DNA from: Aristolochia californica
Lineage: Eukaryota > Streptophyta > Magnoliopsida > Piperales > Aristolochiaceae
DNA length: 64,000 bases
NCBI GenBank assembly: GCA_029961685.1
Contig: JARWKL010000010.1
Coordinates: forward strand, 23,596,067-23,660,066
Reading direction: 5' to 3'
A program made the position numbers and the translations under genes. Below the pieces are notes generated by a model. That model had not been told where the DNA came from. It saw nothing but the letters and a program-made list of their open reading frames with translations, and made no database searches. This document shows, one piece after another, positions 1,081 through 64,000 of this stretch; the first letter of the stretch is position 1, and every line of letters starts with the position of its first letter.

Positions 1081-1089
1081 TTCAATTTT

Positions 1090-1503: not shown

Positions 1504-1574
1504 TCACTGACTTTTTGTTTGTTATGCACTGCTATTTGTGATATGAAATAACAAAAAAATATTAAGTTAGTCAT

Positions 1575-42950: not shown

Positions 42951-42955
42951 ATTGT

Positions 42956-43590
42956 TCAAGTAGGTCCAATTAAGTCCATGTGGATTAGTTGAAGTGGACA
43001 ACAGGTTGAAACTATATTCTTGGCATTGAAATAAATTTTGTGTTGCTTTCCTAATTGGCAAGTATCACAAGGACTCTCTCTTACAAATTTTTGATCTGGT
43101 AGTCCTCTCACTAGATTCTTTTTCACTAGTTTGTTCAAGAAATTTATTCCTATATGTCCTAGTCACTTATGCCATAACCAAGATTTATCCATTTTTGCAC
43201 CCAAACAGATGGCACTTGTTGAGGGTAAATTGACTATGTTCACTACATAGAGATTTCTATTTCTATGTCTCTCTAGAACTAGTTCATCATTTTCTTTCTT
43301 TACTAAGCATTTGTCCTTTTCAAATGAAACTTTGTTTCCTTTATAAAAAAATTAACTAATGTTAAGCAAGTCATGCATCAACCCTTCTACATAATACACA
43401 TCAGATATGAAAGAGGTTGAGGCACTTATTTTACCAATTCCTTTTATGGTACCTTTGTTATTGTCTCTGAAACGTACATGACCTCCATCTTTGGGATTGA
43501 GTTCAATGAACTTCTTCTTATCACTGGTCATGTGCCTCGAGCAACCTCTATCAAAAATCCAAAATTTTTTTGGTGCCTTGGCTTGGAGAC
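42956..43590 (-). pseudogene. copia protease / pre-integrase / integrase start
   Basis: Minus-strand frames read IFDRGCSRHMTSDKKKF (protease; the Ser of the usual DSG is Arg), then ..VYYVEGLMHDLLN, KCLVKKENDELVLE, a pre-integrase with W.WH..LGHIG and SPCDTCQLGKQHK, and the integrase start LIHMDLIGP. It stops there, at the edge of the 40301-42950 insertion. There are frame breaks, and the protease substitution would abolish activity. Confidence 0.82.
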
Positions 43591-43603
43591 ATACCTATAT
43601 CAC

Positions 43604-44034
43604 TGTTGAATTTATGGGAAAGATAAAACTTTTTTTACTTGTTGTAATCAGTGTACAAGAACCTCTATTTATAATAGAGGAAGGTAGTAGAGTCCAATTA
43701 CAATAAAACTACCTTTGTCCCAATTACACCCAAACTCTAACACTGAAAGATAAGTCCTAGCATAATTAAATAACTCAATATAGATAAAAGACAAACCTAA
43801 CTCAAACTAAAACTCTTCTAGGACGTGACCATTAGATAAAGATACTTTCTTGAGTCCTTCTTGATCTTCCAACTGATGTGATAAGGATGCCAACTCATGG
43901 TAATCGTTGTGGGTCCTACTTATTATGGCCTTGGGCCCATCTTGTGACCTTCTTTGGTTATTTTGCCCATCTTATTATACTCTTAGATATGTGGGCCTCC
44001 TTGGTCGTGTGGGCTTGAGCCTTATCTTCCAACA
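43604..44034 (-). repeat. Solo copia LTR with target-site duplication
   Basis: 431 bp bounded by TGTTG and CAACA, flanked by ATCAC (43599-43603) and ATCAT (44035-44039), four of five identical. On the minus strand it starts TGTTGGAAGATAAGG. It has a TATA-like TATAAATAG near 43660. It lies between gag and protease of the older copia element, so it inserted after that element. Confidence 0.82.
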
Positions 44035-44049
44035 ATCATGAAAAGTTTA

Positions 44050-45512
44050 ACCCTTAAAGATCCATTTTAGGTTGGGTCCCTTTGGGATAACATTTGAGGT
44101 TCTAGCTTATTTGGGCCTCCAAACTTGTTTGCTCAACTTCTTTTGGTTTACTACAACCTTTTTGGTTGATTTGGGTTTGATGCCTTTTTAATTCTTAACT
44201 TCACAAATGTGATCATAGTGACTCATCTCATTGAAATAGTGGCATCTAATGTGAGGAATGGGAGAAAATTTATTGTTTTGCTTTGTACTATTCTTTCCAA
44301 CTTTCTTCTTAGGTGTGGATTTGAGAGAGAAGTTTGACTTGATGTTCTAAGTCTAAACTCTTCTTTTCAAATGCAAGTCAATCACATGGTAGCTTGTCTA
44401 TCAATCCATTTAGTCTTGAGGCATTTTCTATATATATTTCATTAGCTTCCTTCATGACAACAAGCTCTTCTTTGAGCCTTGCAATCTCATGTAATTGAGC
44501 ATTGCATTTTTCTTTATATTTGTTTAGACAATGAATAGACTTTTTTCTTCAATTGCATCCCAAGCTGAGATCAAGACTTTCTTCTTTTTGTTCTTGGGAT
44601 TTTTGCTTGTAGATGGGGTTCTTTCTTCAAGCTTTGGATATTTGTTCCTTCTATGTCCTAGTTTCCCACACTCAAAAGAAACATTAGTTTCCTTATAGAA
44701 TTTGTCATTTTGAGTTCTATATTGGCCTTTTATGAAATTCTTCTTTTTCCTATAGATTCTTTGAAGATGTCTAGTGATGAAACTTACGTCATTAGAGCTT
44801 TCTTCACTAGAGTTACTTTCAACACTCGTCTTGGCCGTAAGAGCAATTTTCTTAGCTTGCTCTTCCTCATCATCTTGAGGTTCCATGTCATAAGTGAGAA
44901 GGATTCACAGTAGCTCTTTTGAGCTTATAGTTCTAAAGTTACATTCTCATGCAAGGTTATCTTCCTCGTCTCTCTTGACTTTGGAAGTGCCTTGAGTAGC
45001 TTGTCATTTTGTCTATAGAAGGAAGTCTGTCCTCCTAGATTTTTCAACTCATTAATTATATGAGTGAACCTAGATTTCATCTCAGATATTGACTCACCTA
45101 GTTTCATTTTGAATTCATCGTCTTGGGCTAGCAATAAGCTAATTCTAGAGTCTTTTACTCTAGTGATTCCTTCATGTGTGACTTCTAGTTTATCCCAAAT
45201 TTTCTTGACAATTTTACATGTGGAGACCCTATTGAACTCATTTGGTTCTAGGTTTAAGGCCTTAGAGATTGTCTTGAGCTGCTCTTTGTCTTTCCTAGTT
45301 AGCTCATTGAATTCATTTTCAATTGGAAGGCCATATTCAAGTTTTTGAGGTTCAAAAGGACCATTCTTGGTTACATGCTATATTTCCAAATTCATAGATT
45401 GAAGAAAGAACTTCATTCTTACAATCGAATATCTATAGTTTGTTCCATTGAACAAAGGTGGATAATTGGCATATTGTTCTTCGGTAAGGAACAATTTGTC
45501 TTGAGATGCCAT
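44050..45512 (-). pseudogene. copia gag of the nested element
   Basis: From an ATG at 45510-45512 (MASQDKLFLTEEQ) the minus strand encodes a UBN2-type gag: YRYSIVRMKFFLQ, WDKLEVTHEGI, LGESISEMKSRFTHIINEL. A TAG interrupts soon after MNLEI and frames shift later. The zinc knuckle is degenerate: FECGKLGHRRNKYPK, with the first and last cysteines lost. The following part is Lys/Ser-rich. Gag would form the virus-like particle shell of the retrotransposon. Confidence 0.82.
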
Positions 45513-45565
45513 TTTTTTTTTTTTCAAAATCAAGAGGATTTTGATTTCAATTCAGTGTTTGGCCC

Positions 45566-45577
45566 ACTCTGATACCA
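45566..45577 (-). promoter_or_regulatory. Primer binding site, initiator tRNA-Met
   Basis: The minus strand reads TGGTATCAGAGT two bases after the LTR end CAACA. It fixes the 5' LTR boundary of the nested copia element. Confidence 0.85.
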
Positions 45578-45579
45578 AT

Positions 45580-47192
45580 TGTTGGCTCAATGGCTTCTCA
45601 AGGGGAGGATGAATTGAGAATATCGAATAAAAATTAAGTTGCACGTGTAATAAAAAATCATGCATAAAAGTAAATCAAACCATACATACACCATAGGAGA
45701 CAATTTTTTTTGTTGTTGTTATTGATGTTCTCCTATTGGTATTCACTGCCCAAGAACCATTGCTTGGGAAATTTCACTATTAAAAACCACTAATAGCCGA
45801 AATTACATAAAGAGATTTTGGCTCTCTTTAAGCCACTTTTAGATCAATACATTTATTTTACAACACCGATCTTCCGAAGAGATTGCTACTAGATTCTAGC
45901 TCTAGGAGGCCCTTTGTATCTAGATTCTATAGGTTCTAGATGAACCTTTCACAAATTTAAGTAAAAATAAAGAAAAATGTACACCCTTACTTGGAGAGAT
46001 CATTCTCCTTGAGAGATCCAAGCTTCCTCTTCCTTGACAACACAATGTGAAGTGATTGAAGGAGTTTGACTATATGAAAGCAAGGACGGGATGGAAAGAG
46101 ATGTGGGATTTGAAATAATATGACTCACTCTTTCACTCTAAAGCACTTTTAAGAGATTTTTCAAGATTGAGAGTAAAAGCTTAGGATATTTTCCAATAAA
46201 TGCTCATTAAATTTTCAATACAATGTTTGGTGGGGTATTAAAAACTTTCCCAACTCGAACTAGACATTTTTTGCCCATTTGCAAAAATCAGTACTTTGAT
46301 TGATCGAACAATTGATCATAACAACTACTTTTCTATTAGACAGTGACATATTGATCGATGGACTGATTGATCAATATATTACCATTTTTCCAAAAAAATT
46401 AAGTTGCTCAATCATTGACTAGGGGATGATCGATCAATCAGAATTTCCTCTGACTATGCAATACAAGTATGATCGATTTGTGCATTTCCTATGATCAGTC
46501 ATGCTTTATGTCCCTGACTGGCAAGATTCTGTTTGATTGGCAAGATTCTGTCTGATCGATCAATCAGGTGGGGTGATCAATCATTCCATGTAAAATTTGT
46601 TTGCCTGGGTAGAATTGATCAATCAACCAAATGGGATGATTGATCATGCTTTATAGCATGAAATGGCCATGTTCTGGATGGTGGATCAATCAACTATGGT
46701 TTATCAATCATGCTTTATATTTCCTGCCCCTACACTTCTAGATGATCAATCTTTCCAGTGTCAGTTCAACTATGTTGACATTTAAAACATGAGAATGTTT
46801 TTCTCTAAGTTCTCTCACAAGTTCTAAGTGATGTTCATGATGTTCTTAAATATATCTATATGCATTTTATGACTTAAAGCTTCAATTTCACAGTTGCACT
46901 TAACCAAGGGAGTTTAAGAATACTCTCTTACATTGTGACTGAGTATGGACATTTAACTTTTACATTTGAACTCTTGTCTTCTCATTGTCTTCTTCCTTGG
47001 GGTGCTTCTACTAGTGATATCTTTTAATTATGCTCGAGATCTTGTGTAGGCTTGATCTTTTTGAAGTTTTAAACCTTGAGATGCATTGACTCTTGATGGT
47101 GAAATAGATGAATACTTAGTTTTTCAAATTTTTGGATTAATTAGGTTTTGTTATCATAAAAAAATAACATAGGAGTCAACCTATGCTCAACA
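45580..47192 (-). repeat. 5' LTR of the nested copia element
   Basis: About 1.6 kb from TGTTGGCTC to GCTCAACA (plus reading). Direct repeat of 38853-40300. Carries the same dispersed palindromes (GATCGATCA..) with CATGCTTTAT modules at 46290-46760. Confidence 0.82.
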
Positions 47193-48699: not shown

Positions 48700-49400
48700 A
48701 GTCCTCGTACCAAGGGATGCCCTTGTCACTTATTTCATGCATCAAGTAATACGTGTTGGACTTTGGGTGTGTTGATATTAGCTTTGAAAGATGATACATA
48801 CCTAATACAATCCAACAAAAGATGCATATTAGATGTAATGATATAGATATTACCAGTTACGCCAATTCTTGTGGTTGATACGTAACACATTACCCACCTC
48901 GTCAACTTTTTAGTGTTGCTTATTATAGCAAGTTAAATTAAAAAGATTAAACAAATCTTAGCTAAAGTGTAGTTTTGGATAAAATTGAAAAGTCACCTAC
49001 GAAATAATAATTGTCATTTCTAATTAATGTGAAAGGATATCATTGTTATGGGAAATGAGGTATCCCATAACAATGATATCCTTTCACAATAATTAGAAAT
49101 GAAAATTATTATTTTGTACGTGACTTTTAAATTTTATCCAAAACTACACCTTAGCTAAGATTTTTTGGTCTAAAGGCAATAGAAGTGAAAATTATTCATA
49201 AAGATGTTTTTTTTCTTGAATAGTTTTGCATATTCTAAATCATTAGAGTTCCAAATATAGCAATTCAATATCTTCTTTTACATTTCTTTTGGTTTCAAAC
49301 TATGAGTAAGTTTGTGAGAGTAAGAAAGTCTCATAGAGATGTTCTCATCTTGAATATCATCTATTTTAAAATCATTGATGATGAGATTCATCTTGGATAT
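48700..49400. repeat. F-box unit flank, copy 5, inverted
   Basis: Reverse complement of 32870-33510 along most of its length, for example CATTAGAGTTC, TTTACATTTCTTTTGG, CGTCAACTTTTTAG, CCAACACGTATTAC. It is interrupted internally by a fold-back duplication (48954-49162). Confidence 0.7.
48954..49162. repeat. Fold-back inverted repeat, two ~100-bp arms, 9-nt loop
   Basis: Arms 48954-49053 and 49063-49162 are reverse complements with only a handful of mismatches; the loop is AATGAGGTA. The arm tips read AATCTTAGCTAA and TTAGCTAAGATT. Only one of the two arms is expected from the parent repeat at 33130-33260, so the other is an inverted duplication. RNA from either strand would form a long hairpin. 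Confidence 0.88.
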
Positions 49401-49744: not shown

Positions 49745-50562
49745 CTATCAGTTTACCATTAGGCTACTTTCCTGCTTCCTACCACATGTCACCGTTATGT
49801 ACTCGTTTGTGTCTATGTCATAGCTATCTAGTAGGCCCAACATGACTTCTGCTGCTACCTAGAACTTCTTCGGGGTTTGACCCTATTCCTGCCGGCTTAC
49901 CACCACGTGGGCAATTCCGTCGATGCGGTCCTCACGGTCTTCAGAGGGCCCCGAGCCGTTCCTATTAACCGTTGCGGCTCCATGGCTGCTTCAGCAGGGT
50001 AGAGCACAGCTCCGTTTCGTTTTCTACCTCGGAGCGTAGCCGAATAATTCCAAGTCTCTAGCTTCTGTCCTATTTGGCACTATTTCGATACTATTTCTTT
50101 TTGTCGAGTGAACAGTAAACATGAATAGTAACTATGAATAGTAAAAATGAACAGTACTTTTGAACAGTAACTATGGAACAGTAAAAACAAACACTGTGGA
50201 GATCAAGACATAGATGCGGAATATGAACAGTAATAACAACTACTATGGAGATCATATTTATAAATGCGGAACATGAACAGTAAAAACAGTTACTGTACGA
50301 ATCACAATATTACAAACATGCAGAAATATAAAAACATTGTCTGAAACAAAAACATAAAATAAAAAGGAAAAGAAAAAACAACTTATCTACATAACTCCCG
50401 AAGTTACCGACCGTGGCACCGGTCGGTTCCCTCTTTTCTACTCAGCCATTACGGTTGTTTAAGCACATACCGTGCTTGAGGAACTTGCCGGAGAAAGATC
50501 GCCGGAAATCGCCTTCTTCTTCGGAACTAATGCTCGTCTATTGGTGAGTTGCTCCAAGTTTC
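49745..50562 (-). repeat. Left leader arm (inverted copy of 59948-60612)
   Basis: Near-identical reverse complement of the right leader, from the predicted RNA start to the common breakpoint. Differs by about 170 extra bases (roughly 50183-50358) that contain two and a half copies of a ~49-bp unit beginning GAACAGTAA (50176, 50225, 50275). A shorter array of TGAACAGTA / TGAATAGTA lies at 50107-50180. Probably an untranslated leader; the promoter itself is absent from this arm. Confidence 0.85.
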
Positions 50563-51700
50563 GATTGTTTTGCCAATATTTTGTAACGTAGTCTTTTTCA
50601 GCTACATGTGCAAATGGTTCTGGCAATTTTGCATAAAAGATAGACAGATAAGGTTTTGGGTCTTCTTTTTGCAGTTTATAGAAGTAACTTGCAAACTCAC
50701 AGTAATACTTCTCATAAAAACAAATGTTACGGATTTGTAACTTGTTTAATTTTTGAAGAGTTTCTAAACGTTTTCTTTGTTTAGTATTCTCATTGTAGGC
50801 TTCTAGGGTTGGATGTATTCCTAGAAATTCCTTTGATATCTTAGCCACTAATCCTTTCAAGATATTGGCTATCGATATTGAGGTATTAGCTCGTTTTTGG
50901 TCTTCGGGAAGGTTGTCCCACCAAAGAGCTACATTACCCTGTAAAGCATGGGTAAAGAAATTAAATGCTGATTCTTGGTTCCAAGATTCATGCATATTTG
51001 CAGCATTGCTCATGCTTCTTTCCCAATCTTTAAGGACTTTTTCTCCATCCTTGGGGCAATCCAAGTTGAGGTAAAATCCAAAAGGGTTTATGCTATCTAT
51101 GGTTCGGTGTCCGTTAGTAGCATTTGAAGGATCGACATTTGTGTATTTTGTTGAATACCTTTGTCCTCCCAAAGATATTTTGGAGTGGGAGAAACTTTCT
51201 CGTTCTTGCGGATGAACCGCAGTACGGTTTCGGAAGTTATCTTGAAAGCTATCTTCCATGTGGGTATCTCGTACCCTTGAAGTTTCTGCTTCAAAATGGT
51301 CACTACCACGAAGCATTCGAAACCTTTTACCAAGATCATCTGCCTTTTTGTCTTTAGCAGAGTAGTCTATTTTCTTGGTATTTTCTTCTGCAACTTCATC
51401 AGATTCCCAGGCTTCTGGTTCACTGTCGTGTTGCTCTTGTTGTTTACTCGAAGAAGGTTTTTCTTCTTGAACATAATAAATCGGTTGACGACCGAAGGTA
51501 TTATATTCTGCGTAAACTTCATCATCGGTGGAGGATGATGCTTTTGAAGCGATCCTATAAGCAGGTGGTGCTGGATCTTTTCTTCTGGGTGCTATGCAAG
51601 GTGTTGCAAAGTACACTAGGTTTTTAAGCCATCCAGTGATGTCAGGAAGGCCTAATGGTAATGGAGTTTCCATATCCATTAAATAGAAAAACTCTGTCAT
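50459..51700 (-). pseudogene. Pararetroviral coat protein, C-terminally truncated and fused to leader
   Basis: Open frame of 413 codons starting MTEFFYLMDMETPLPL. The first ~378 residues match the right-unit coat protein, differing by about a dozen residues and a 2-residue indel. At 50563-50565 the coat sequence jumps to leader text and the frame continues through NLEQLTN and SPASSSSTVCA to a stop. The basic region and zinc knuckle are lost, so RNA binding and assembly would be impaired. The ATG overlaps the stop of the preceding small ORF (TATGA). Confidence 0.85.
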
Positions 51701-51912
51701 AGAGCTAATTCTTGAAGCTTCCGTTGAAACTTTTTAATTAGATACCGTAGTAGAATTTCTCTACGGGTTAATCTCCACCATTCATTCAAATATGCCTGAT
51801 AGGCTATATCGGTGTCAATTACTGGTGTGAGAGTTTCTCTGGCTTGCCAATTTTGGGCTTGCATTGACCGTACCAGACGAAGTTGATCTAGTAGTCTTGC
51901 TCTACTGATCAT
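51697..51912 (-). CDS. Pararetroviral small ORF, 71 aa, second of a pair
   Basis: Starts MISRARLLDQLRLVRS and ends FQRKLQELAL, the same framework (LLD.L, Trp-rich middle, basic C-terminus, LAL end) as the ORF just upstream, so the two are tandem duplicates. Absent from the right unit. Arg/Lys and Leu-rich, probably helical. Starts one base after the previous stop and ends overlapping the coat ATG. Function unknown; I know no named family for it. Confidence 0.6.
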   Translation of the reverse strand: MISRARLLDQLRLVRSMQAQNWQARETLTPVIDTDIAYQAYLNEWWRLTRREILLRYLIKKFQRKLQELAL

Positions 51913-51913
51913 T

Positions 51914-52129
51914 TTACAAAGCTAAAAGATTTAGCTTCCTTTTGATTTTCTTGATCTTGCATCTAAGGTTGTAGATGCGATCAGAATATCTTTCCCAAAA
52001 ATAGTAATACCATACCATTGCTGGGATTGTATTATCTTCTGGCTGAAGAGTATTTCTTTGGAGTAAAGCGAGGTTAAGGCTTTCTCTTTTTAATTTTAAA
52101 CGATCTAAAAGTTTCCTTTTATAGATCAT
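51914..52129 (-). CDS. Pararetroviral small ORF, 71 aa, first of a pair
   Basis: Starts MIYKRKLLDRLKLKRE and ends KIKRKLNLLAL. Its right-unit counterpart (55288-55503) has the same ends but looks only about two-thirds identical, far less than the coat proteins. The ATG lies within ATGA and overlaps the stop of the coiled-coil ORF; four codons further upstream are also open but belong to that overlap. Basic, helical, unknown function. Confidence 0.6.
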   Translation of the reverse strand: MIYKRKLLDRLKLKRESLNLALLQRNTLQPEDNTIPAMVWYYYFWERYSDRIYNLRCKIKKIKRKLNLLAL

Positions 52130-52545
52130 TCTGGTGTCCAAGGTGTAAAAGGTGTTTTATACCGTGATGGACTTGGAGAACCTAGAAGTTCTTTTGAACC
52201 TTGATGTTCTTTTAATGCTAAGACTTCTGTCAGAATTTCTTGCATTTTATCTTTGTTTAGATTATCTAAACTTTGTTTAAGTTCTGTTAACTCTTTGAAG
52301 AAAACAGGACTATTTCCATGGTCAATCTTTTCTAGAATATTTTCTAGGGTGTTTTGACACTTTATTATTTCTCTATGTTTATGTTCATCATAGAGGAAAT
52401 CTATTTTCTGTTGGAGGTTTTCAACAGTTTTTTCTAACCTATTAAGTGTCTTACCATAAGACTCTAAGGTTTGAATGGAATTGGTGACTATGTCACTATT
52501 TCCTATCTGTGGACCTAAGGTTTTGTATGGATTATGTGCCATCAT
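52126..52545 (-). CDS. Coiled-coil ORF, candidate virion-associated protein
   Basis: 139 residues. Residues ~25-105 show heptad-like spacing of Leu/Ile (LESYGKTLNRLEKTVENL, FFKELTELKQSLDNL), followed by a Pro/Ser/Thr tail (SPSRYKTPFTPWTPE). Size, coiled coil, proline-rich end and position between movement and coat genes resemble the caulimovirid virion-associated protein, which forms a tetrameric coiled coil and binds coat protein and nucleic acid. Assignment is by layout, not by sequence motif. Overlaps the movement ORF end by 14 nt. Confidence 0.55.
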   Translation of the reverse strand: MMAHNPYKTLGPQIGNSDIVTNSIQTLESYGKTLNRLEKTVENLQQKIDFLYDEHKHREIIKCQNTLENILEKIDHGNSPVFFKELTELKQSLDNLNKDKMQEILTEVLALKEHQGSKELLGSPSPSRYKTPFTPWTPE

Positions 52546-53488
52546 CTATGTGAAGAGGAACATAAGCATTGGGCCTTGGATTTCCTATTCCTTCGAAACG
52601 GGAACTAGTTGAGGTTCTACTTATCGAGGTAGAGGGCCTGTCCTGTTCGATGGAAAAGCTGGGTCTAGTGTTTGTGATCACTAGTTTTCCTTCTATCTCC
52701 TTTATGGTTTTTCGAGAGAGAGGAAGGTGTCTGGGTGCCAAAGGTTGAACTACCCATTCTGTTGGCCATGTTAACTCTCTTGGGTCGAGTTCTTCTATGG
52801 TCAAATTTTCCGAATAACCAATGTTTTTGGCTAATTCTGTGAGTTTCTTTGAATCTTTAACTGGAACCTTTCCAGTGTTGATTCCTCGGGCTACTATGCA
52901 TACAAGTATGCGCATAACTCTTCTTCCTGGTTGAATTCCATTTTTCGACCAGTTGTCTGTATAGATTTTTAGGGACAAGGTATCTTAGATGTGCTTGTCT
53001 TCTAAATCTATTTGTAGATTGGGCCATGTTGTAAAGGATACTGGGCCTAATCCTAAATTTGCTCTAACTCCTTCGAGTAGGGCCTTTTCAAAATTATTCT
53101 TCACAGAGTTATCTACTATAGCTGCTATGAAGGGTAAATTCTGATTGATTCGTATTAAGGGATCTAATCCTATACGAACTAGTCCATAATGGACATATTT
53201 GAATCTCTTTAGCTTGGCTAAGTCAGATACACTTAATAATCTGTAGCAGAAAGTACCTGAGTCGGTATCCTGTATTTCTACAGATAGTTCCTTCTGGAAA
53301 ATGAAGGATTTCTTTTGGAATTCAATCCAATCTTTGTTGTAGACTTCAGTTATCCTAGGGATACTTATTGTCCACTTTTGTCCATCCTGCATGAGATTAG
53401 GATGTTCATCGTATTCTCCCTGTGTTTCATGATGTATATGAACACTGTTTTGGAGAGAAGTACATTCGATTCCTATCTGTTCAGACAT
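52532..53488 (-). pseudogene. 30K-superfamily movement protein with one in-frame stop
   Basis: A 318-codon frame with a single TAA at codon 168 (52985-52987). Upstream of the stop are 30K features: FKYVHYGLVRIGLDPL, LPFIAAIVDN with the conserved Asp, then ANLGLGPVSFTTWPN and LQIDLED. Downstream the frame continues SLKIYTDNW, GRRVMRILVCIVARG and a Ser/Thr-rich tail. These proteins line plasmodesmata and move virus between cells. The downstream part has no ATG near its start and is not a separate gene. The ATG overlaps the end of the preceding ORF by 8 nt. Apart from the stop it is undamaged, so decay is recent or slight. Confidence 0.85.
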
Positions 53489-54164
53489 TTAGGAATTTTA
53501 TATGAGTTGAGGTCTCTTCTAATTTTTGGAACAGGAGTTCAAGCAATCGTTCCAATTGATACAAAGTGATGAAAGGAGTGATGTGTTGTATAACAAGTTC
53601 TCTCAATTCCTCATTTTGTGTTAAGGCACAGATATCGCGTATAAGACGATCTCTATCTGTTCCATGATGAGTTTTTACAGAAGATATTTTGCAAATTACT
53701 TCTTGTAACTCCTTTTTTGATGGTTTGTTATTAACCATCTTTATTTTCGCTTCTCGGATTGGTGCTAAGATCCTAGAAGGATTTATTTCTTCATCCACAT
53801 AGCTTTGTAGATCTGTAAGGAAACGTACTGTTTCATCAGTACTTCCTGTTTTAAGTACCTCAAGATGGGCATTAATTCTTCTCTTGAGTTTCTGTACTCG
53901 TTCATTAACGTCACTTTCTATTCCTAAGCATAGGAAAGCAACGCTTTCTGGGGTGTATTTTTCCCAGCATCTTTTCAGAAAGAAGCTGTGATGTATATCA
54001 CCAACTAAATCCATTATATTATTTAATATTGGATTATTCTTGTCATGCCATCCATGTGGATAGCCTATTATTGGACAAACATTTGCCTGTCCAGTTTTCA
54101 ACACGGTGTCGTAAGAAGGACCGATGAGTTCCTTCTGACCTACCAGTTGGGGTCTTTGATACAT
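53481..54164 (-). CDS. Unrecognised pararetroviral ORF, 227 aa
   Basis: First long ORF after the left primer site, starting MYQRPQLVGQKELIG about 150 nt downstream of it. No motif recognised. The middle is Lys/Glu-rich (NERVQKLKRRINAHLE) and the C-terminal third is Leu-rich and probably helical (LVIQHITPFITLY, LERLLELLFQKLEE). A similar-sized ORF before the movement gene occurs in some multi-ORF caulimovirids, but homology cannot be judged by eye. Intact. Confidence 0.55.
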   Translation of the reverse strand: MYQRPQLVGQKELIGPSYDTVLKTGQANVCPIIGYPHGWHDKNNPILNNIMDLVGDIHHSFFLKRCWEKYTPESVAFLCLGIESDVNERVQKLKRRINAHLEVLKTGSTDETVRFLTDLQSYVDEEINPSRILAPIREAKIKMVNNKPSKKELQEVICKISSVKTHHGTDRDRLIRDICALTQNEELRELVIQHITPFITLYQLERLLELLFQKLEETSTHIKFLNV

Positions 54165-54318
54165 TAGTACATTTGTTCCTTACAAATGTTACTTGGGATG
54201 TGACCGGTATGGGTCGTAACTGTTTGGGAGTATGTATACCTAAACAGAAAGAATCAAAGATAAGCTTTGACTTCTTTGACACATACAAAACCAAGTCTAA
54301 TACTTGGCTCTGATACCA
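54163..54318 (-). repeat. Primer-proximal inverted repeat, left arm
   Basis: Near-perfect reverse complement of 54498-54652: both read TAGACTTGGTTTTGTATGTG, GATTCTTTCTGTTTAGGTA and CCATACCGGTCACATCCC. Homology ends abruptly after AAATGTAC, where the two units switch to different genes. Confidence 0.9.
54306..54318 (-). promoter_or_regulatory. Primer binding site of the left unit
   Basis: The minus strand reads TGGTATCAGAGCC, a perfect match to the caulimovirid initiator tRNA-Met site, which by convention marks position 1 of the circular genome. Confidence 0.92.
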
Positions 54319-54497
54319 ATTTCACGAGACTGACAGGTAGCAGTCCCTAGGATTCTTGTTCCGCTGCCCTGTATCCCTAGGATGTCTTCCGCTGTGTGTA
54401 CAAGTCTATTAGAGACTTTGTGTCGATATCATAGCAATAGTGCTTTGGTATCAGTATCCCGCTGTCAGAGTCTGCTAGAGACTCCTTGTGTTTAAAA
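54319..54497. other. Central spacer between the two primer sites
   Basis: 179 bp holding the leader ends of both units. It contains direct repeats: CCCTAGGAT..CTT.TTCCGCTG twice (54347 and 54375) and AGTCT..TAGAGACT..TGTG twice (54405 and 54467). A partial primer site (TGGTATCAG, 54446-54454) occurs on the plus strand. Outside the repeats the two leader ends are not alike. Confidence 0.7.
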
Positions 54498-54510
54498 TGG
54501 TATCAGAGCC
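54498..54510 (+). promoter_or_regulatory. Primer binding site of the right unit
   Basis: TGGTATCAGAGCC on the plus strand, perfect match to the tRNA-Met site. Starts the right pararetroviral unit. Confidence 0.92.
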
Positions 54511-54666
54511 GAGTAATAGACTTGGTTTTGTATGTGTCAAAGAAGTCAAAGCTTACCTTTGATTCTTTCTGTTTAGGTAAAAATACTCCCAAACAGTTAC
54601 GACCCATACCGGTCACATCCCAAGTAACATTTGTAAAAAAGAAATGTACAAACCCAAAAGTCCATT

Positions 54667-54993
54667 ATGGAACAAAATAGGTCTAATCCAGAAATAAGAC
54701 TTATAAATTATTCGCGACTGCGAGAATTTATCATGACCAGAAGGTATGATAATCAAATCGAATTCCAGAGGGTCTGGATTCGACAGTTAAAAGATCGACT
54801 CGCACGAGTTCAAGCCAAACTCAAAGAGCTCGAAGAAAATCCTTTAGTTGTAGATTATAACAACGAAGGAAGAAGAATAATCCGAGATGGACGATTCTTA
54901 GGACTCGGTCCAGTAGGATTAAAACAAGTTATCAAAGACCTGAAACACCAAATCTGGATTGAACAACTTGAACTTCAAGAATATGCTATCTAA
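54667..54993 (+). CDS. Pararetroviral ORF, 108 aa, unrecognised
   Basis: Starts MEQNRSNPEIRLINYS. Residues 25-60 are a charged helix (IRQLKDRLARVQAKLKELEE), followed by a Gly-rich turn (GRFLGLGPVGLKQ). It replaces the 227-aa ORF of the left unit at the same distance from the primer site. The stop overlaps the ATG of the viroplasmin ORF (11 nt). No known motif. Confidence 0.55.
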   Translation: MEQNRSNPEIRLINYSRLREFIMTRRYDNQIEFQRVWIRQLKDRLARVQAKLKELEENPLVVDYNNEGRRIIRDGRFLGLGPVGLKQVIKDLKHQIWIEQLELQEYAI

Positions 54994-55291
54994 GAAATTC
55001 TTAGAAGATTTGGTAATCATTCTGCAAAGAGAAATCTACAGAATGACCCATGAAGAAATCGTATCTCAACCTGTAGACACCGCTTCAACAGGAGAAGCCT
55101 CTACAAGTACATACGAAAAGCCAGAAAAAACAAAATACTGGTATGTTGTCTTCATAGGAAGAGCAACAGGAATATATGACAGCTGGGAAGAAGCCCAAGC
55201 TCAAGTCATAGGATTTCCCAGAAATTCTCACAGAAAATTCCGGACAAAGAACGATGCTGAACAAGCCTGGACAGCATCCCGAAATAAATGA
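54983..55291 (+). CDS. Viroplasmin-domain ORF (Cauli_VI / RNase H1 N-terminal type)
   Basis: About 102 residues from the ATG at 54983 (an upstream ATG at 54959 lies inside the previous ORF). The C-terminal half matches the viroplasmin pattern closely: YWYVVFIGRATGIYDSWEEA, then AQVIGF, KFRT and DAEQAW. In caulimoviruses this domain sits inside the large translational transactivator/inclusion protein near the 3' end of the genome; the same fold binds RNA:DNA hybrid in RNase H1. Here it stands alone, before the coat gene. Its TGA overlaps the next ATG (ATGA). Intact. Confidence 0.8.
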   Translation: MLSKKFLEDLVIILQREIYRMTHEEIVSQPVDTASTGEASTSTYEKPEKTKYWYVVFIGRATGIYDSWEEAQAQVIGFPRNSHRKFRTKNDAEQAWTASRNK

Positions 55292-55503
55292 TCTATCGGC
55301 AAAAACTTTTAGATCGTTTGCAACAAAAGAGAGAAGGTCTAGCCTTCACTCTCTTGCTAAGAAACATGCTTCAACTAGAAGATGATACTACCTTAGCCAG
55401 GGAATGGTACAATTTCCATTGGGAAAGGTATACGAATCGCATCCATCTATTTCGATGCAAAATCGACAAAATCAAACAAAAGCTAAACCTCCTAGCTTTG
55501 TAA
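55288..55503 (+). CDS. Pararetroviral small ORF, 71 aa (right unit)
   Basis: MIYRQKLLDRLQQKRE to KIKQKLNLLAL, paralogous to the two left-unit ORFs at 51697-52129. Begins in an ATGA overlap and is followed two bases after its stop by the coat ATG. Unknown function; basic and helical. Confidence 0.6.
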   Translation: MIYRQKLLDRLQQKREGLAFTLLLRNMLQLEDDTTLAREWYNFHWERYTNRIHLFRCKIDKIKQKLNLLAL

Positions 55504-55505
55504 AA

Positions 55506-57251
55506 ATGAATGAGTTTTTCTATTTAATGGATATGGAAACTCCATTACCATTAGGCCTTCCTGACATCACCGGATGGCTTAAAAACCTAGTGTACTTTGC
55601 AACACCTTGCATAGCACCTAGAAGAAAGGATCCAGCACCACCTGCTTTTAGGATCGCTTCAAAAGCATCATCCTCCACCGATGATGAAGTTTACGCAGAA
55701 TATAATACCTTCGGTCGCCAACCGATTTATTATGTTCAAGAAGAAAAACATTCTTCGAGTAAACAACAAGAGCAACACGATAGTGAACCAGAAGCCTGGG
55801 AATCTGATGAAGTTGCAGAAGAAAATACCAAGAAAACAGACTACTCTGCTAAAGACAAAAAGGCAGATGATCTTGGTAAAAGGTTTCGAATGCTTCGTGG
55901 TAGTTTTGAAGCAGAAACTTCAAGGGTACGAGATACCTACATGGAAGATAGCTTTCAAGATAACTTCCGAAACCATACTGCGGTTCATCCGCAAGAACGA
56001 GAAAGTTTCTCCCACTCCAAAATATCTTTGGGAGGACAAAGGTATTCGACAAAATACACAAATGTCGATCCTTCAAATGCTACTAAGGGACACCGAACCA
56101 TAGATAGCATAAACCCTTTTGGATTTTACCTCAACTTGGATTGCCCCAAGGATGGAGAAAAAGTCCTTAAAGATTGGGAAAGAAGCATGAGCAATGCTGC
56201 AAATATGCATGAATCTTGGAACCAAGAATCAGCATTTAATTTCTTTACCCATGCTTTACAGGGTAATGTAGCTCTTTGGTGGGACAACCTTCCCGAAGAC
56301 CAAAAACGAGCTAATACCTCAATATCGATAGCCAATATCTTGAAAGGATTAGTGGCTAAGATATCAAAGGAATTTCTAGGAATACATCCAACCCTAGAAG
56401 CCTACAATGAGAATACTAAACAAAGAAAACGTTTAGAAACTCTTCAGAAATTAAACAAGTTACAAATCTGTAACATTTGTTTTTATGAGAAGTATTACTG
56501 CGAGTTTGCAAGTTACTTCTATAAACTGCAAAAAGAAGACCAGAAACCTTATCTGTCTATCTTTTATGCAAAATTGCTAGAACCATTTGCACATGTAGCT
56601 GAAAAAGACTACGTTACAAAATATTGGCAAAACAATCTAGAACTTGGTACTTTAACCATGGATATTTTCCTAAACATTGATACGTTAGGAAGAAGACATA
56701 GATTTGTACAAGACATGTTGGCAAATCTTTGTGAAGCCCAAAAACTACAAAAGAAAAGTAGTAAGGCAAATAAACAAACATTATGTTGTTCAAACCAGAA
56801 CAAAAATGTAGGAGCTTATGGTTGCAAAACCACCTCTCATAAGCAACGAAAATATCCTAAGAAATTTCAACAAAAAAAATTTAGGATACAAAAAAGTTTT
56901 ACAACAAGGTATACTCCTAAAAAGAGATACTTTCGAAAGAGAACAAATTCTGGCCCCACCACATCCAGTAAAGGGTCAAATGCATACTGCCCAAAGGGGA
57001 AAACCCCAAGCAAATGCAAATGCTGGATATGCCAGAAAGAAGGACATTTCGCCAGAGATTGTCCAAATGATAAACAACAACGGCGGTACAGTACATACAT
57101 GTTACTAGCCGAAGAAAACGGATTGGAAATCATCCATTACGATGACATCCAGTCAGAAGATGAGGTGTATGAACTTCATCTCGAAACTGAGTCCTCCTCC
57201 TCGGAAAACTCAGAGTACATGTCAGACTCTTCAGGTTTCTTCTCTGAATGA
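55506..57251 (+). CDS. Pararetroviral coat protein with CCHC zinc knuckle
   Basis: 581 residues from MNEFFYLMDME, chosen because it matches the left-unit start; an upstream in-frame ATG at 55404 lies in the previous gene. N-terminal third is acidic (Glu/Asp/Ser), the middle has a gag-like core (HALQGNVALWWDNLPEDQ, FYEKYYCEFASYFYKL), followed by a very basic Lys/Arg tract and a zinc knuckle CWICQKEGHFARDC at residues 506-519, then an acidic Ser-rich tail. That order is typical of caulimovirid coat proteins. The frame is fully open. The stop overlaps the protease ATG (ATGA). Confidence 0.88.
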   Translation: MNEFFYLMDMETPLPLGLPDITGWLKNLVYFATPCIAPRRKDPAPPAFRIASKASSSTDDEVYAEYNTFGRQPIYYVQEEKHSSSKQQEQHDSEPEAWESDEVAEENTKKTDYSAKDKKADDLGKRFRMLRGSFEAETSRVRDTYMEDSFQDNFRNHTAVHPQERESFSHSKISLGGQRYSTKYTNVDPSNATKGHRTIDSINPFGFYLNLDCPKDGEKVLKDWERSMSNAANMHESWNQESAFNFFTHALQGNVALWWDNLPEDQKRANTSISIANILKGLVAKISKEFLGIHPTLEAYNENTKQRKRLETLQKLNKLQICNICFYEKYYCEFASYFYKLQKEDQKPYLSIFYAKLLEPFAHVAEKDYVTKYWQNNLELGTLTMDIFLNIDTLGRRHRFVQDMLANLCEAQKLQKKSSKANKQTLCCSNQNKNVGAYGCKTTSHKQRKYPKKFQQKKFRIQKSFTTRYTPKKRYFRKRTNSGPTTSSKGSNAYCPKGKTPSKCKCWICQKEGHFARDCPNDKQQRRYSTYMLLAEENGLEIIHYDDIQSEDEVYELHLETESSSSENSEYMSDSSGFFSE

Positions 57252-58096
57252 GTATCCGCATAAACGCAGAGCATGTTGCATCTGGAAATTCTTATATCAC
57301 GGTCATGCTTAAACTACCCGGATATATCAAATTCCATATACACGCTCTCGTAGATACAGGAAGTTCATATTGTCTAGCTAGACAAAATCTACTTCCCACC
57401 GATCTATGGAAACCACTTGAAGCGCCCCTTCAAGTAACAGTTGGCTCCGGAGAAACTATCTCTCTTCCTGCCGAACCCCGCAACATTCATCTCGACATTG
57501 GAGGTGAAAAATTTATGATTCCAAAACTCATAAGTTTAGGATCAAACATAAATTTCGGACCAGATTTAGTCCTAGGAAATGAATGGCTCATGTTTCATGC
57601 CCCTGTCGAGCAAACACCAGCCTACTATAAACTTCGATGTCACACTCGACGTGAAATCGACAATACTGATGTCTTTGTCTACGCAGTAAAACCTACTGAA
57701 GCCTATGCCATTTCTGGCAATGGAGCTGTCCTCCATCAGGTCTTCAAAAAATGCCAAATCAATGATTCTGAAAGAATATGCAAATATACATCAGGAACAT
57801 TTTCATCTGCTGAAACAAACTATCATTCTTATGAAAAATAAATTTTAGCAGTAAAAAATGGGATAAAAAAGTTTTATATTTATCTCGCTCCCAAAGAATT
57901 TCTGGTAAGAACTGACTGTAAAAAATTTATCGGTTTTATGACAAGAAATTTAGAAGATTCACTTTGTCGCGATAGGTTACTCCATTGGCAGCAATGGTTC
58001 TTTCAATTCTCTTTCACTGTTGAACACATTAAAGGAGATAAAAACTATTTACCTGACACTCTTACTCGAGAATTTTCTTGTGTTACAGACAGGTAA
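57248..58096 (+). pseudogene. Protease-RNase H fusion lacking reverse transcriptase
   Basis: Starts with an aspartic protease: ALVDTGSSYCLA (catalytic Asp36) and DLVLGNEWL. Soon after FVYAVKPTEAYA the frame passes directly into RNase H sequence (GAVLHQVF, ICKYTSGTFSSAE), so the ~350-residue reverse transcriptase with its YxDD box is gone without a frame break. A TAA at 57839-57841 stands where Glu of EILAVKN is expected; beyond it RNase H continues (FLVRTDCKKF, RLLHWQQWFF, EHIKGDKNYLPD) to a stop at 58094-58096. The pol product is inactive. Confidence 0.87.
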
Positions 58097-58097
58097 A

Positions 58098-58361
58098 ATG
58101 GATCCCCTCAGCAGCACCCTGACGGACCTAGCAGCAGCAATTGCCGCACTCACGGTATTGCTCTCAACCCTACAGTCACTATTCGACAGTCTTTTAGTTC
58201 TCTCAGAACAAGAAGACATTTTTGAGAATTGTGCCCGTTACGGGTTAAGTGGAGAACTCTTACAACTCAAGGTTAAAGAATTAACTGAAGAGTTAAAAGA
58301 ACTCACCCTACGGCATGAAATGCCAAGCTCCTCCGGGACTTCTACCGGATCTCCATTGTGA
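58098..58361 (+). CDS. Pararetroviral ORF after pol, 87 aa
   Basis: Starts MDPLSSTLTDLAAAIA one base after the RNase H stop. Leu/Ala-rich helix at 5-40 (ALTVLLSTLQSLFDSLLVL), then a charged helix and a Ser/Thr tail ending GTSTGSPL. The tail resembles the repeats at the start of the next ORF. Possibly a separate gene or the detached start of the distal protein. Unrecognised. Confidence 0.5.
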   Translation: MDPLSSTLTDLAAAIAALTVLLSTLQSLFDSLLVLSEQEDIFENCARYGLSGELLQLKVKELTEELKELTLRHEMPSSSGTSTGSPL

Positions 58362-58412
58362 GAAAAGGAAGCTACAACGTCAGCTAATCAGCAGACGGAT
58401 GACTTTAGTGTT

Positions 58413-59573
58413 TTGATAAACACAAGTCGACCCGGGATTTCTACCAGTCATGCCAGGCATGAGAAGGAAATCACAACCCAATCTTCTCTGAAGATAGGGG
58501 AATCAGGGATTTCTACCTGCCAGTCAAGAGCTGGAAAGGAAACCTTAACGATTTCGTTGAAATCGGAATTAGGGACTTCTACCTGTCAGTCTAGAACTGA
58601 AAAGGAAGTCTTAACGGATCCATCCCTGATGGAAACGGACTTGTCTAAGAATGAGAAATCATTCAAGACAAAATTGGTTACCCCGTCTGAGTTTACAAGG
58701 TTGAAAAGCCTAAATAAACCAGATAAAACTAGTTTTAATGAGTTTGAGTTTTTAAAGAAATTTAAACCTTTAAAACTTTCGGACATTATGTCTGAGGAAC
58801 CCTCGCTACGCCCTCAACAGGTGGACAGCGTTCGTTCAAAGATCGAATCCGATCATACTGTTCAATTCCAGAGATGGAATGAACAAATTGGACAAGGGAT
58901 GAACACTCCCTTCTTCACCACTGAGCCCAGCAACAGTTGGAATCAAGTGAAGCTGAGTCATGAAATAGACTCAAAATATGCATCCATGCTTTATGCATAT
59001 GGATTCATAAAACAACTGGTATTGCCCTCCACCGACTTATCCGTATTGGAGAAAATGCCAAAGGAAATTATGGAGGCTTGCAAAAGTTTTATCTCCATAA
59101 CGAAGAGTAAAGGAATTCGACTGCATTTCGTTTCCTGTATTGCTGAAATTGTTACTGACACCAAAATGTTTCCAAGCATTTCCGTCGTGACTATTGAAGG
59201 CATCAAAGAAGGTGACGCCAACATGGAATATGATCCCAGACATGTTCCAAAAGCCTAGCCTTGCCCAGAAGCAGTCTGGCCAACCAGACGTATCCACGGG
59301 CTAAAACACCTGATACAGCTCATGAAGCAGCTGATTCAGAAAAAGAGAAGCTTCGTCTACAAGACCTCCGTCCCATTGACGATCATCTCTAAAAGCTATA
59401 AAGAGACTCCGGCCTCCATCCAGACCAGTCTTGAAGTTACGCTGAAGAAACTCCTTGGAGGAAATATCCCCTTAAGCAAAACAACAAAGGAAAGCTTCTG
59501 CCAGATGGCTCAGAAGACTTTTTCTAAGGAGCACACATGTAAACTGTGCACAGAAAGGCAGCTGTCCGAATGA
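58413..59573 (+). pseudogene. Distal ORF in transactivator position, with one in-frame TAG
   Basis: A 386-codon frame broken only by a TAG at 59256-59258 (codon 282). The first ~75 residues hold about three repeats of a ~24-residue unit (ISTSHAR.EKE, ISTCQSRAGKE, TSTCQSRTEKE). The centre (RWNEQIGQGMNTPF, KYASMLYAYGFIKQL) and end (HTCKLCTERQLSE) match nothing I can name. Position between pol and promoter is that of the caulimovirid transactivator/inclusion protein, but it lacks a viroplasmin motif, which is found instead at 54983. The frame after the TAG is open for 105 codons, so the stop is probably a mutation. Confidence 0.6.
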
Positions 59574-59611
59574 GCAGTCAGCAGCCACGACAACCAACTA
59601 GTCAGCAGCCA

Positions 59612-59950
59612 CGTCAGCAGACTAGGCCCACGACGAAAACAAAGTCAGCAAAAGCGGCTCAAAAGTCCGCAATGGCGACTACAAAAAGTCATCAATGACG
59701 GCTACACAAGTCAACAAAGATGGCTAAAAAAGATTCCTGTACGTCATCATCATGACATCACAAGCAAAAAAGACATTTCTACCCCTGCTTTCGACGCCAA
59801 AAGGTAATAATGCAAGGGCAAAAGAGACATGCCAAAAAGACAAAAGTTACCCTTTGTCTTTAAACGCACACCTTACAATCAAGGGTAAAGGTGGAAAAGC
59901 TGAAAAATCTTTAGCTATAAATACGATGCTCCTCCAGAGGAAAGATCATC
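59612..59950 (+). promoter_or_regulatory. Pararetroviral promoter (TGACG motifs, TATA box)
   Basis: CGTCA/TGACG motifs at 59612-59616, 59696-59700 and 59742-59746 resemble the as-1 element of the cauliflower mosaic virus 35S promoter. A TATA box (TATAAATA) lies at 59916-59923, so transcription should start about 59947-59948. AATAAA follows at 59971. In a circular genome it would drive the pregenomic RNA; in this insertion it points rightward out of the locus. Activity is inferred. Confidence 0.75.
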
Positions 59951-60612
59951 GAAACTTGGAGCAACTCACCAATAAACGAGCATTAGTTCCAAAGAAGAAG
60001 GTGATTTCCGGCGATCTTTCTCCGGCAAGTTCCTCAAGCACGGTATGTGCTTAAACAGCCGTAATGGCTGAGTAGAAAAGAGGGAACCGATCGGTGCCAC
60101 GGTCGGTAACTTTGGGAGATATGTAGATAAGTAGTTTTTCTTTTCCTTTTTTCTTTTACTGTTCCATAGTTACTGTTCAAAAGTACTGTTCATTTTTACT
60201 ATTCATGGTTACTATTCATGATTACTATTCATATTTACTGTTCACTCGTCAAGAAGAAATAGTATTGAAATAGTGCCAAATAGGACAGACGCTAGAGACT
60301 TAGAATTATTCGGCTACGCTCCGAGGTAGAAAACGAAACGGAGCTGTGCTCTACCCTGCTGAAGCAGCCATGGAGCCGCAACGGTTAATAGGAACGGCTC
60401 GGGGCCCTCTGAAGACCGTGAGGACCGCATCGACGGAATTGCCCACGTGGTGGTAAGCCGGCAGGAATAGGGTCAAAACCCGAAGAAGTTCTAGGTAGCA
60501 GCAGAAGTCATGTTGGGCCTACTAGATAGCTATGACATAGACACAAACGAGTACATAACGGTGACATGTGGTAGGAAGCAGGAAAGTAGCCTAATGGTAA
60601 ACTGATAGTTTA
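59948..60612 (+). repeat. Right leader arm
   Basis: Sequence downstream of the predicted RNA start, inverted repeat of 49745-50562. A short open frame through NLEQLTN to STVCA is kept in both arms. T-rich repeats of TACTGTTCA / TACTATTCAT occupy 60160-60245. Ends at AACTGATAG, after which flanking DNA begins. Confidence 0.85.
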
Positions 60613-62548: not shown

Positions 62549-63300
62549 TCACATTACTTTGTAAGCATTGAACCGGACCTAATCTTACTTGGTCCAATTA
62601 CTATAGGACCAGACAAACGGGCCGGATCTTCCAATTTTAAGCTAAATCTATTTTCCCTATATAAGAAACAAAAAATCATTGAACCGATGGGTCAGTTTCG
62701 GTTCTGACACCACTCATCCATGTGGTAGTTTGCCTAATGGCACTTTATGCTTCCATCCTAAAATGGTTACTGACACAGCAACATCTGTCACGCCCCATCG
62801 TCAGGTTTTTTACAACCAATTTTATGAGTGCATTGAATGTCTGAATTTTTTGTTACAATCAGAAATGTGTAAACAAGAGTTATATAAAGCAGAAGGGAGT
62901 TAGAGCAGTGAGAGTAGGGGAAAGAGAATCAAGAGTGTTTTGTCTTTCCTTTCATCTTCTTCTTCTTTTTTGTCTTGTAAAGAAATTGCAACAGAGAAGA
63001 GGAACAACATAGCTGTTCAAAGATGTGATCCTCTTTTTTCTAGGAGAGTGGTTTCCTGTACTGCAATCGATCCATTTGTAAGCCTTTTCTTATTCATTCA
63101 TCTGTTTAAAATGTGCTAATCTGATGCTCTCTCCATCGCTATTTGAATCCTCTTTGTTTTTTTCCTTTAATGGTGCTTTCTTAAATCTTCTCAACTCAAT
63201 TTAAGTTCGTCTACTTGCTTATCATAGGTAAATACTACGGAGTCTGACAAGAATTTTACTGGAGCTCCGCTAGTACCTGAGATATTGACAAGTTGAACAA
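62549..63300. repeat. F-box unit flank with TATA box, copy at right end
   Basis: Direct repeat of 428-1080 in the same orientation, with an insertion near 62610-62770. TATATAAA is conserved at 62881-62888, as are the CT-rich tract and CAATCGATCCATTTGTAAGCC. Conservation of the TATA region in both copies suggests it mattered before duplication, or that the duplication is fairly recent. Confidence 0.75.
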
Positions 63301-63419
63301 TCCAGTTTTTCAATTTGAAATGCTCAACCCAACCAGTTCAGCATTCAATTTGACAAATATGATGGTTCAAACTAGCAGCTGGCTAGGTTGTGCATTCAAT
63401 TTGAAAGTCTCGAGTACAA

Positions 63420-64000
63420 GTGGTCTACATCCCTGGATAGTTCGAAGTAGAAGTCGAGGTCAATGGTGAGCATCTCGAAAGCTTCATTTAGGGAGGGGAT
63501 GTCTTTGAAAGTGGCTTGTCACAACTCGACCCTTGACCTTGAGACTCTTCAGGTTCAGCTTGCTTATCTCAATCTCTTTAGCCAAAGTTGATCAATCTTC
63601 ATTACTTTCATTTTTTAGAGATTTGAAACCATTGAAATTGTATGCATCAGGTTAAGTTGAGTGAAGATATCAATGGACAAGAGAACAAACAGTCCACTTT
63701 TCTGTAGTTCTTCATCCAACGAATATCATCAAGTTCAAGCTACTTAACTCCACTCTTAATCTCTTCAGTTGAAGATGATCAATCTTCACCGACTTTAGGG
63801 AGTTGTAGCAACTCAAAGTCAAGTCCTCGAGAAGAGGGGACCCACTAATTATCTCACCTAATTGATCACCAGTAATGGCCACACGATAGAGAGCAACACT
63901 TCTTAGGGTTTTGAAACCCTTGACAGCTTGTGGGGCCTACAGTATCCCGCAAGTTAAGTTGAGAGATGATATTGATAGACTAGAGAACAAAGAGTTTGAC
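63420..64000 (-). pseudogene. F-box/LRR relic running off the window
   Basis: Minus-strand text matches the LRR and tail parts of 5315-5870: AGTGTTGCTCTCTATCG, CAATTAGGTGAGATAATT, GAAGATTGATCATCTTC, then a second, diverged copy of the same LRR part (63570-63700) and the tail at 63430-63520. Part of the LRR region is thus duplicated within the relic. The F-box itself would lie beyond 64000. Several frames; no intact protein. Confidence 0.7.

What the first reader, a model, noticed from the sequence alone, without database searches (positions are those of the whole stretch)
52130..55287. Alternative gene modules at one genomic slot: movement versus viroplasmin
Left of the centre the slot between primer-proximal block and 71-aa ORF holds a 227-aa ORF, 30K movement protein and coiled-coil ORF. 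Right of the centre it holds a 108-aa ORF and a viroplasmin ORF. Both modules begin just after AAATGTAC and end in an ATGA overlap with a 71-aa ORF, while flanks match. This could mean a virus with two genome components sharing leader and coat, an organisation suggested for some florendoviruses but not, to my knowledge, with this gene split, or a modular recombinant.
Basis: partly seen in the sequence, partly recalled or inferred. Interest (0 to 1): 0.9.

Follow-up and report, generated by a model that had tools for sequence, protein, structure and literature searches.

The report
Two virus genome types, one locus
A plant chromosome holds two back-to-back fossil copies of one plant virus that share leader, coat gene and regulatory region but carry different gene sets between them, which suggests the virus travelled as two cooperating or parasitic genome types.

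Summary
Two head-to-head Caulimoviridae copies, each with a tRNA-Met primer site at its inner end, share leader (149 of 159 sites), coat N-part (1109 of 1129) and intergenic region, but between leader and coat carry different gene sets. Left: 227-aa ORF, 30K movement protein, coiled coil, two 71-aa ORFs. Right: 108-aa ORF, viroplasmin-domain ORF, one 71-aa ORF. The shared 71-aa gene is deeply diverged (dS 1.23, dN/dS 0.20) against coat dS 0.04: old gene sets, young flanks.

Two corrections. The right copy has no reverse transcriptase: protease runs in frame into the C-part of RNase H. The left copy lost everything from mid-coat to 32 nt after a TATA box, the predicted pregenomic RNA start, which looks like the scar of a misdirected strong-stop transfer; so its missing pol says nothing about a pol-less component.

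Best reading: two co-replicating genome types of one caulimovirid, the right one non-autonomous (no movement protein, no RT). Bipartite florendoviruses and non-autonomous grass pararetroviruses are published parallels. Recurrence could not be tested: the genome-search tool answered none of 16 tries.

The parts
54306..54318 (-). tRNA-Met primer binding site TGGTATCAGAGCC, inner end of left unit
   Evidence: exact match; 4 matches with up to 1 mismatch in the window, chance mean 0.06
54164..54322 (-). left leader, 93.7% identical to right leader
   Evidence: 149 of 159 sites
53481..54164 (-). 227-aa ORF, predicted helical at low confidence, no relative found
   Evidence: mean pLDDT 49.6
52532..53488 (-). 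30K movement protein in two pieces (53488-52985 and 52978-52532), same frame, one in-frame stop between
   Evidence: PF01107 3.4e-8 on the first piece, no Pfam match on the second; frame check
52126..52545 (-). 139-aa ORF, coiled-coil-like
   Evidence: many weak Pfam matches, several to coiled-coil families, none above its cut-off among the 25 shown
51914..52129 (-). left 71-aa ORF (75 aa from a TTG), counterpart of the right 71-aa ORF
   Evidence: 63.4% aa identity to right ORF; dN/dS 0.20
51697..51912 (-). second left 71-aa ORF, paralogue
   Evidence: 39.4% aa identity to right ORF; 0 of 200 shuffles
50554..51700 (-). coat protein N-part (about 380 codons), then jump into the intergenic region
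   Evidence: 97.6% nt to right coat ORF; Caulimovir_coat_dom 0.0015, below cut-off
50563..50565 (-). deletion junction (shared ATC): coat sequence joined to the predicted 5' end of pregenomic RNA
   Evidence: joins right-unit position 56634 to 59948, 32 nt after the TATA box
49745..50565 (-). left intergenic/leader region with a 164-nt stretch (50350-50187) absent on the right
54323..54493 (.). 171-nt centre between the two heads; about 29 nt near the left primer site resemble the downstream ORF of the right unit (about 58566-58592)
   Evidence: score 42 against best of 100 mononucleotide shuffles 30
54498..54510 (+). tRNA-Met primer binding site, inner end of right unit
54494..54652 (+). right leader
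54667..54993 (+). 108-aa ORF
   Evidence: no family above cut-off
54983..55291 (+). viroplasmin / RNase H1 N-terminal domain ORF (110 aa from a TTG at 54959; first ATG 54983)
   Evidence: PF01693 2e-15; PDB 3bsu RNase H1 1.7e-5
55288..55503 (+). right 71-aa ORF
55506..57251 (+). coat protein, 581 aa, zinc knuckle
   Evidence: PF00098 7.6e-6; PF22909 1.4e-4, below cut-off
57248..58096 (+). protease running in frame into the C-part of RNase H; RT and N-part of RNase H absent; one in-frame stop at 57839
   Evidence: PF02160 1.7e-15 and RT_RNaseH 9.6e-4 from profile position 16; RT_RNaseH 4e-5 on the next piece; both RT_RNaseH scores are below Pfam's cut-off (19.7 and 24.2 against 24.8 bits)
58098..59573 (+). 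ORF in the transactivator position, about 491 codons with two in-frame stops, no Pfam match above cut-off
59916..59923 (+). TATA box of the presumed pregenomic promoter
   Evidence: only TATA[AT]A[AT] on this strand in 56641-59960
59948..60608 (+). presumed pregenomic RNA leader with a long predicted hairpin; homology to the left unit stops at 60608
   Evidence: fold z -4.1, 0 of 20 shuffles

Best explanation
The locus is one compound insertion of DNA from two genome types of the same caulimovirid that replicated together. Type 1 (left) carries 227-aa ORF, movement protein, coiled coil and two 71-aa ORFs ahead of coat. Type 2 (right, at least 6.1 kb) carries 108-aa ORF, viroplasmin-domain ORF and one 71-aa ORF ahead of coat, and lacks movement protein and RT, so it needed type 1 or another helper. 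Shared leader, coat and intergenic region let type 2 be copied and packaged by the same proteins and were kept alike by recombination (inferred). The left copy is a dead-end product: minus-strand strong-stop DNA reached the RNA 5' end and transferred to a site inside the coat gene instead of the 3' repeat, deleting pol, the downstream ORF and the promoter (junction shown, process inferred). The copies then joined head to head at their primer-site ends in the chromosome (arrangement shown, process inferred).
For: Mosaic identity: leader 10 of 159 sites differ, intergenic 14 of 215 and 7 of 442, coat 20 of 1129, against dS 1.23 in the 71-aa gene and no alignment in the rest of the modules. dN/dS 0.20 in the 71-aa gene means both versions evolved under selection long before insertion. 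Coat nonsynonymous changes are rarer than noncoding ones (12 of about 885 sites against 31 of 816, Fisher p 0.0017), suggesting the two lineages replicated apart for a while. A 164-nt stretch only in the left intergenic region is a further lineage difference. Right unit: protease runs in frame into RNase H, and the ORFs from coat to RNase H are contiguous, so there is no room for RT. Left junction at 59948 is 32 nt after the only TATA box in that 3.3 kb; the sequences show no GT-AG at the ends, so it is not a splice. Homology of both units begins 4 bases before the primer site. Published parallels: non-autonomous pararetroviruses sharing homogenised intergenic regions (PMC5491270) and compound insertions of components A and B (PMC4241990).
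Against: One locus, one copy of each type; recurrence untested (genome search answered 0 of 16 tries). The coat differences alone fit neutral decay (8 of 20 synonymous; P 0.04 to 0.25 over six mutation models). The intergenic blocks are uneven (6.5% and 1.6%), so the noncoding yardstick is imperfect. The RNase H matches are below Pfam's cut-off. The RNA start is predicted from a TATA box, not mapped, and the left leader folds little better than shuffles (z -1.5, 1 of 20). The left copy may keep a promoter: a TATAAATA lies in its extra stretch at 50262-50255. The end of mutual homology (49745 / 60608) shows that at least one unit ends there, not that both do.
Confidence: 0.55

Rival explanations
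1. True two-component virus: both types needed, movement protein and RT on one, viroplasmin domain and an RT-less coat-protease block plus downstream ORF on the other.
For: The right unit has the gap reported for florendovirus component B (RT and N-part of RNase H1 missing, PMC4241990) and at 6.1 kb as bounded by homology falls in the reported 5.5-6.9 kb range. Among the ORFs scanned the viroplasmin domain occurs only in the right unit and the movement protein only in the left, so the sets are complementary.
Against: No copy with RT is seen; type 1 may be complete by itself (an inference: movement module plus coat, pol and downstream ORF would add up to an ordinary genome size), making type 2 a mere parasite. 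Single locus.
Confidence: 0.25
2. One-off modular recombinant: the right unit took its 108-viroplasmin-71 block from another virus species, and the pair is a chance co-insertion.
For: Sharp borders at the leader end and at the coat ATG; the 71-aa gene differs by 28% in nucleotides, a large distance for one virus.
Against: The recombinant would lack movement protein and RT yet keep its module ORFs and coat open; intergenic and coat differences suggest some separate replication.
Confidence: 0.15
3. One ancestral genome with both modules in tandem, from which each unit lost one module.
For: The 71-aa genes are a tandem family (two on the left), so duplicated modules are conceivable.
Against: Needs two deletions with edges at ORF borders and an ancestor carrying three 71-aa paralogues; no trace of the other module in either unit by BLAST.
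Confidence: 0.05

Closest known systems
Bipartite florendoviruses (VvinBV, VvinDV, OsatBV, SbicV; PMC4241990)
   Same: Complementary units sharing a >90% identical intergenic region; component B lacks RT and the N-part of RNase H1; compound insertions of both.
   Different: There one polyprotein holds movement protein, coat and protease, and component B keeps the movement protein. Here genes are separate ORFs, the RT-less unit has no movement protein, and coat rather than movement protein is the shared gene.
Non-autonomous grass pararetroviruses eRTBVL2, ePVCVL, ePVCVL2 (PMC5491270)
   Same: RT-less or coat-less genomes partnered with another virus; intergenic regions kept alike by recombination while coding parts diverge.
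   Different: Those are RTBV-like and PVCV-like with several copies each; here the differing block is the 5' gene set, coat is near identical too, and only one locus is known.
Transactivator-bearing polycistronic genera (Caulimovirus, Soymovirus and others; PMC5902531)
   Same: Separate ORFs with short overlaps or gaps, protease, coat with zinc knuckle, an ORF in the transactivator position, tRNA-Met primer site.
   Different: The viroplasmin domain sits in a small ORF before coat and was not detected in the ORF after RNase H; small 71-aa gene family; genus cannot be placed without RT.

Membership tests
Caulimoviridae | tRNA-Met primer binding site | tested here: met
   both units
Caulimoviridae | 30K movement protein | tested here: met
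   left unit only, PF01107 3.4e-8
Caulimoviridae | coat protein with zinc knuckle | tested here: met
   right unit PF00098 7.6e-6
Caulimoviridae | protease, RT and RNase H | tested here: not met
   protease and C-part of RNase H present in the right unit, RT absent in both copies; filed as defective relatives of the family, not as complete members
Florendovirus | ORF1 polyprotein with movement protein, coat, protease, RT, RNase H | tested here: not met
   separate ORFs with short overlaps or gaps
Bipartite caulimovirid (criteria of PMC4241990) | intergenic region more than 90% identical in both units | tested here: met
   201 of 215 and 435 of 442 aligned sites; a 164-nt stretch is in the left only
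Bipartite caulimovirid (criteria of PMC4241990) | complementary, together complete protein sets | tested here: inconclusive
   movement protein and viroplasmin split, but no RT in either copy
Bipartite caulimovirid (criteria of PMC4241990) | many independent copies of each component | not tested
   The genome search answered 0 of 16 tries
Non-autonomous pararetrovirus (PMC5491270) | lacks an essential domain yet shares the partner's intergenic region | tested here: met
   right unit lacks RT and movement protein
Non-autonomous pararetrovirus (PMC5491270) | multiple fossils show successful spread | not tested
Transactivator-type genera | transactivator with viroplasmin domain after pol (domain placement recalled) | tested here: not met
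   ORF in position but no PF01693 in its three pieces at E up to 1; the domain is in a separate ORF before coat

The most novel reading that the evidence does not exclude
A divided genome evolved in a polycistronic, transactivator-type caulimovirid: movement protein (and probably RT) on one component, and on the other an RT-less coat-protease unit in which a viroplasmin-domain gene stands in the movement module's place, with coat as the shared gene.
Probability: 0.27. Interest if true: 0.75.

Novelty: new variant of a known kind. Interest (0 to 1): 0.52.

Why it matters
In the papers seen here, divided or partner-dependent genomes among viral retroelements are reported for florendoviruses and for grass pararetroviruses. 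A case with separate genes, a different split and coat as the shared gene would show that division or helper dependence arises repeatedly across the family. Because both types sit in one insertion, the locus also records their co-occurrence directly, and the strong-stop scar gives a way to tell accidental truncation from a designed component.

Tried and rejected
Rejected: that the left unit is by nature a pol-less component (its deletion ends at the predicted RNA start and removes the TATA box before it). Splicing as the cause of the left deletion (no GT-AG at the ends, from the sequences). Florendovirus membership. Kinship of the two modules beyond the 71-aa ORFs: of 66 pairs among 12 proteins, 7 pairs had at most 2 of 200 shuffles reaching the score; three of them, among the 71-aa ORFs, stand out (z 12 to 40). 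The other four have z 3.2 to 3.8; one of these crosses the modules with 0 of 200 (227-aa ORF with the right 71-aa ORF), so a remote link through that family is not excluded. The 108-aa and viroplasmin ORFs gave no such pair.

Led nowhere: protein searches with the 227-aa ORF, coat and downstream ORF piece gave no hit at E 0.001. Viral-contig scans with coat, movement-protein piece, protease and downstream ORF piece gave no relative. A degenerate RNase H pattern brought two contigs; tblastn of 13 window protein pieces found nothing in them at E 0.1. The model of the 227-aa ORF was too poor to search. Against PDB, coat matched 15 chains, all over its zinc-knuckle stretch, and the movement-protein piece matched none. 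A paper search for the beet study listed nothing on topic.
Full report
What is there. The window looks like plant chromosomal DNA (by eye: retrotransposon and F-box-like ORFs) with two outward-facing pararetrovirus copies around a 171-nt centre. Each has an exact tRNA-Met primer site at its inner end (54306-54318 minus, 54498-54510 plus; four matches with up to one mismatch in the window against a chance mean of 0.06). Homology of the two copies stops at 49745 on the left (4,578 bases from the start) and 60608 on the right (6,115 bases); at least one copy ends there. BLAST shows shared leader, coat N-part and intergenic region, a 71.6% block for the 71-aa ORF, and nothing alignable between. 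A tblastn of 13 protein pieces found no further viral copy in the window at E 0.01.

Modules. The left module has the 227-aa ORF, a movement protein (PF01107) split by one in-frame stop, a coiled-coil-like ORF and two 71-aa ORFs. The right module has a 108-aa ORF, a viroplasmin-domain ORF (PF01693) and one 71-aa ORF. Both are 97% covered by ORFs, which 0 of 500 shuffles reach. Consecutive ORFs overlap or nearly touch, as in polycistronic caulimovirids described in PMC5902531 (passages seen).

Ages. The 71-aa ORFs differ at dS 1.23 and dN 0.25 (dN/dS 0.20, 71 codons), the coat N-part at dS 0.04 and dN 0.012 (376 codons). The modules are therefore far older than their flanks, and the 71-aa gene was under selection. 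The 20 coat differences alone (8 synonymous, 12 not, by site count) do not firmly reject neutral decay (P 0.04 to 0.25 over six mutation models). Nonsynonymous differences are rarer than noncoding ones (12 of about 885 sites against 31 of 816, p 0.0017), but synonymous ones are not (8 of 243, p 0.85), and noncoding blocks vary from 1.6% to 6.5%. I read this as partly pre-insertion divergence, not proof.

Right unit lacks RT. Protease (PF02160) continues in frame into a stretch matching RNase H from profile position 16, with more of RNase H after one in-frame stop; both RNase H scores are below Pfam's cut-off (19.7 and 24.2 against 24.8 bits). Among the ORFs scanned no RT and, on the right, no movement protein appears. 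The same gap, RT plus the N-part of RNase H1, is reported for florendovirus component B (PMC4241990, section 7 read). The viroplasmin domain, usually part of the transactivator (recalled), was not detected by Pfam in the three pieces of the ORF after RNase H.

Left unit is truncated at the predicted RNA start. The coat sequence jumps from right-unit position 56634 to 59948 through a shared ATC. Position 59948 is 32 nt after the only TATA[AT]A[AT] on that strand in the 3.3 kb. In reverse transcription the first cDNA ends at the RNA 5' end and must transfer to the 3' repeat (general knowledge); a transfer to an internal site would give this scar. The stretch after 59948 holds a short ORF before a structured region, with 27 bases identical in both copies. 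The right copy folds better than shuffles (z -4.1, 0 of 20), the left hardly (z -1.5, 1 of 20). The RNA start itself is a prediction, and the left copy has another TATAAATA in its own extra stretch.

Centre. About 29 bases near the left primer site resemble the right unit's downstream ORF (score 42 against a best of 30 in 100 shuffles), so the centre probably contains viral filler; the other three unit-and-strand comparisons did not exceed their shuffles.

Known context. Bipartite florendoviruses (PMC4241990: passages and section 7) and non-autonomous pararetroviruses with homogenised intergenic regions (PMC5491270: outline, abstract, passages, sections 8 and 9) establish the kind. The passages seen of PMC9719215, PMC10377300, PMC13308828 and PMC5766536 describe no division of this type. 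The ten paper searches (lists capped, open-licence papers only) listed, by title and start of abstract, no transactivator-type caulimovirid with separated movement and viroplasmin modules.

Verdict. Two genome types of one caulimovirid caught in one insertion, the right one non-autonomous; a new variant of a known kind. Whether it was a true bipartite virus, a parasite with helper, or a one-off recombinant needs more loci, which could not be searched.

Noticed in passing
window 51912-51697: Second 71-aa ORF on the left, paralogue of the first (0 of 200 shuffles): a small gene family before coat, no Pfam match.
   Followed up: partly
window 50350-50187 (minus): 164-nt stretch in the left intergenic region with near-repeats and a TATAAATA, absent on the right.
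   Followed up: partly
window 54323-54493: Centre contains a scrap resembling the downstream ORF of the right unit and a degenerate internal repeat.
   Followed up: partly
window 39133-46962: Direct repeats about 6.7 kb apart (83-88% alike) around copia-like ORF pieces on the minus strand (by eye): probably an old Ty1/copia retrotransposon.
   Followed up: no
window 48950-49166: 217-nt fold-back repeat (90%), MITE-like.
   Followed up: no
window 625-6367 and 62803-63998: Related repeats at both ends of the window, F-box-like by eye (ORF at 1090-1503): probably a dispersed host gene family.
   Followed up: no
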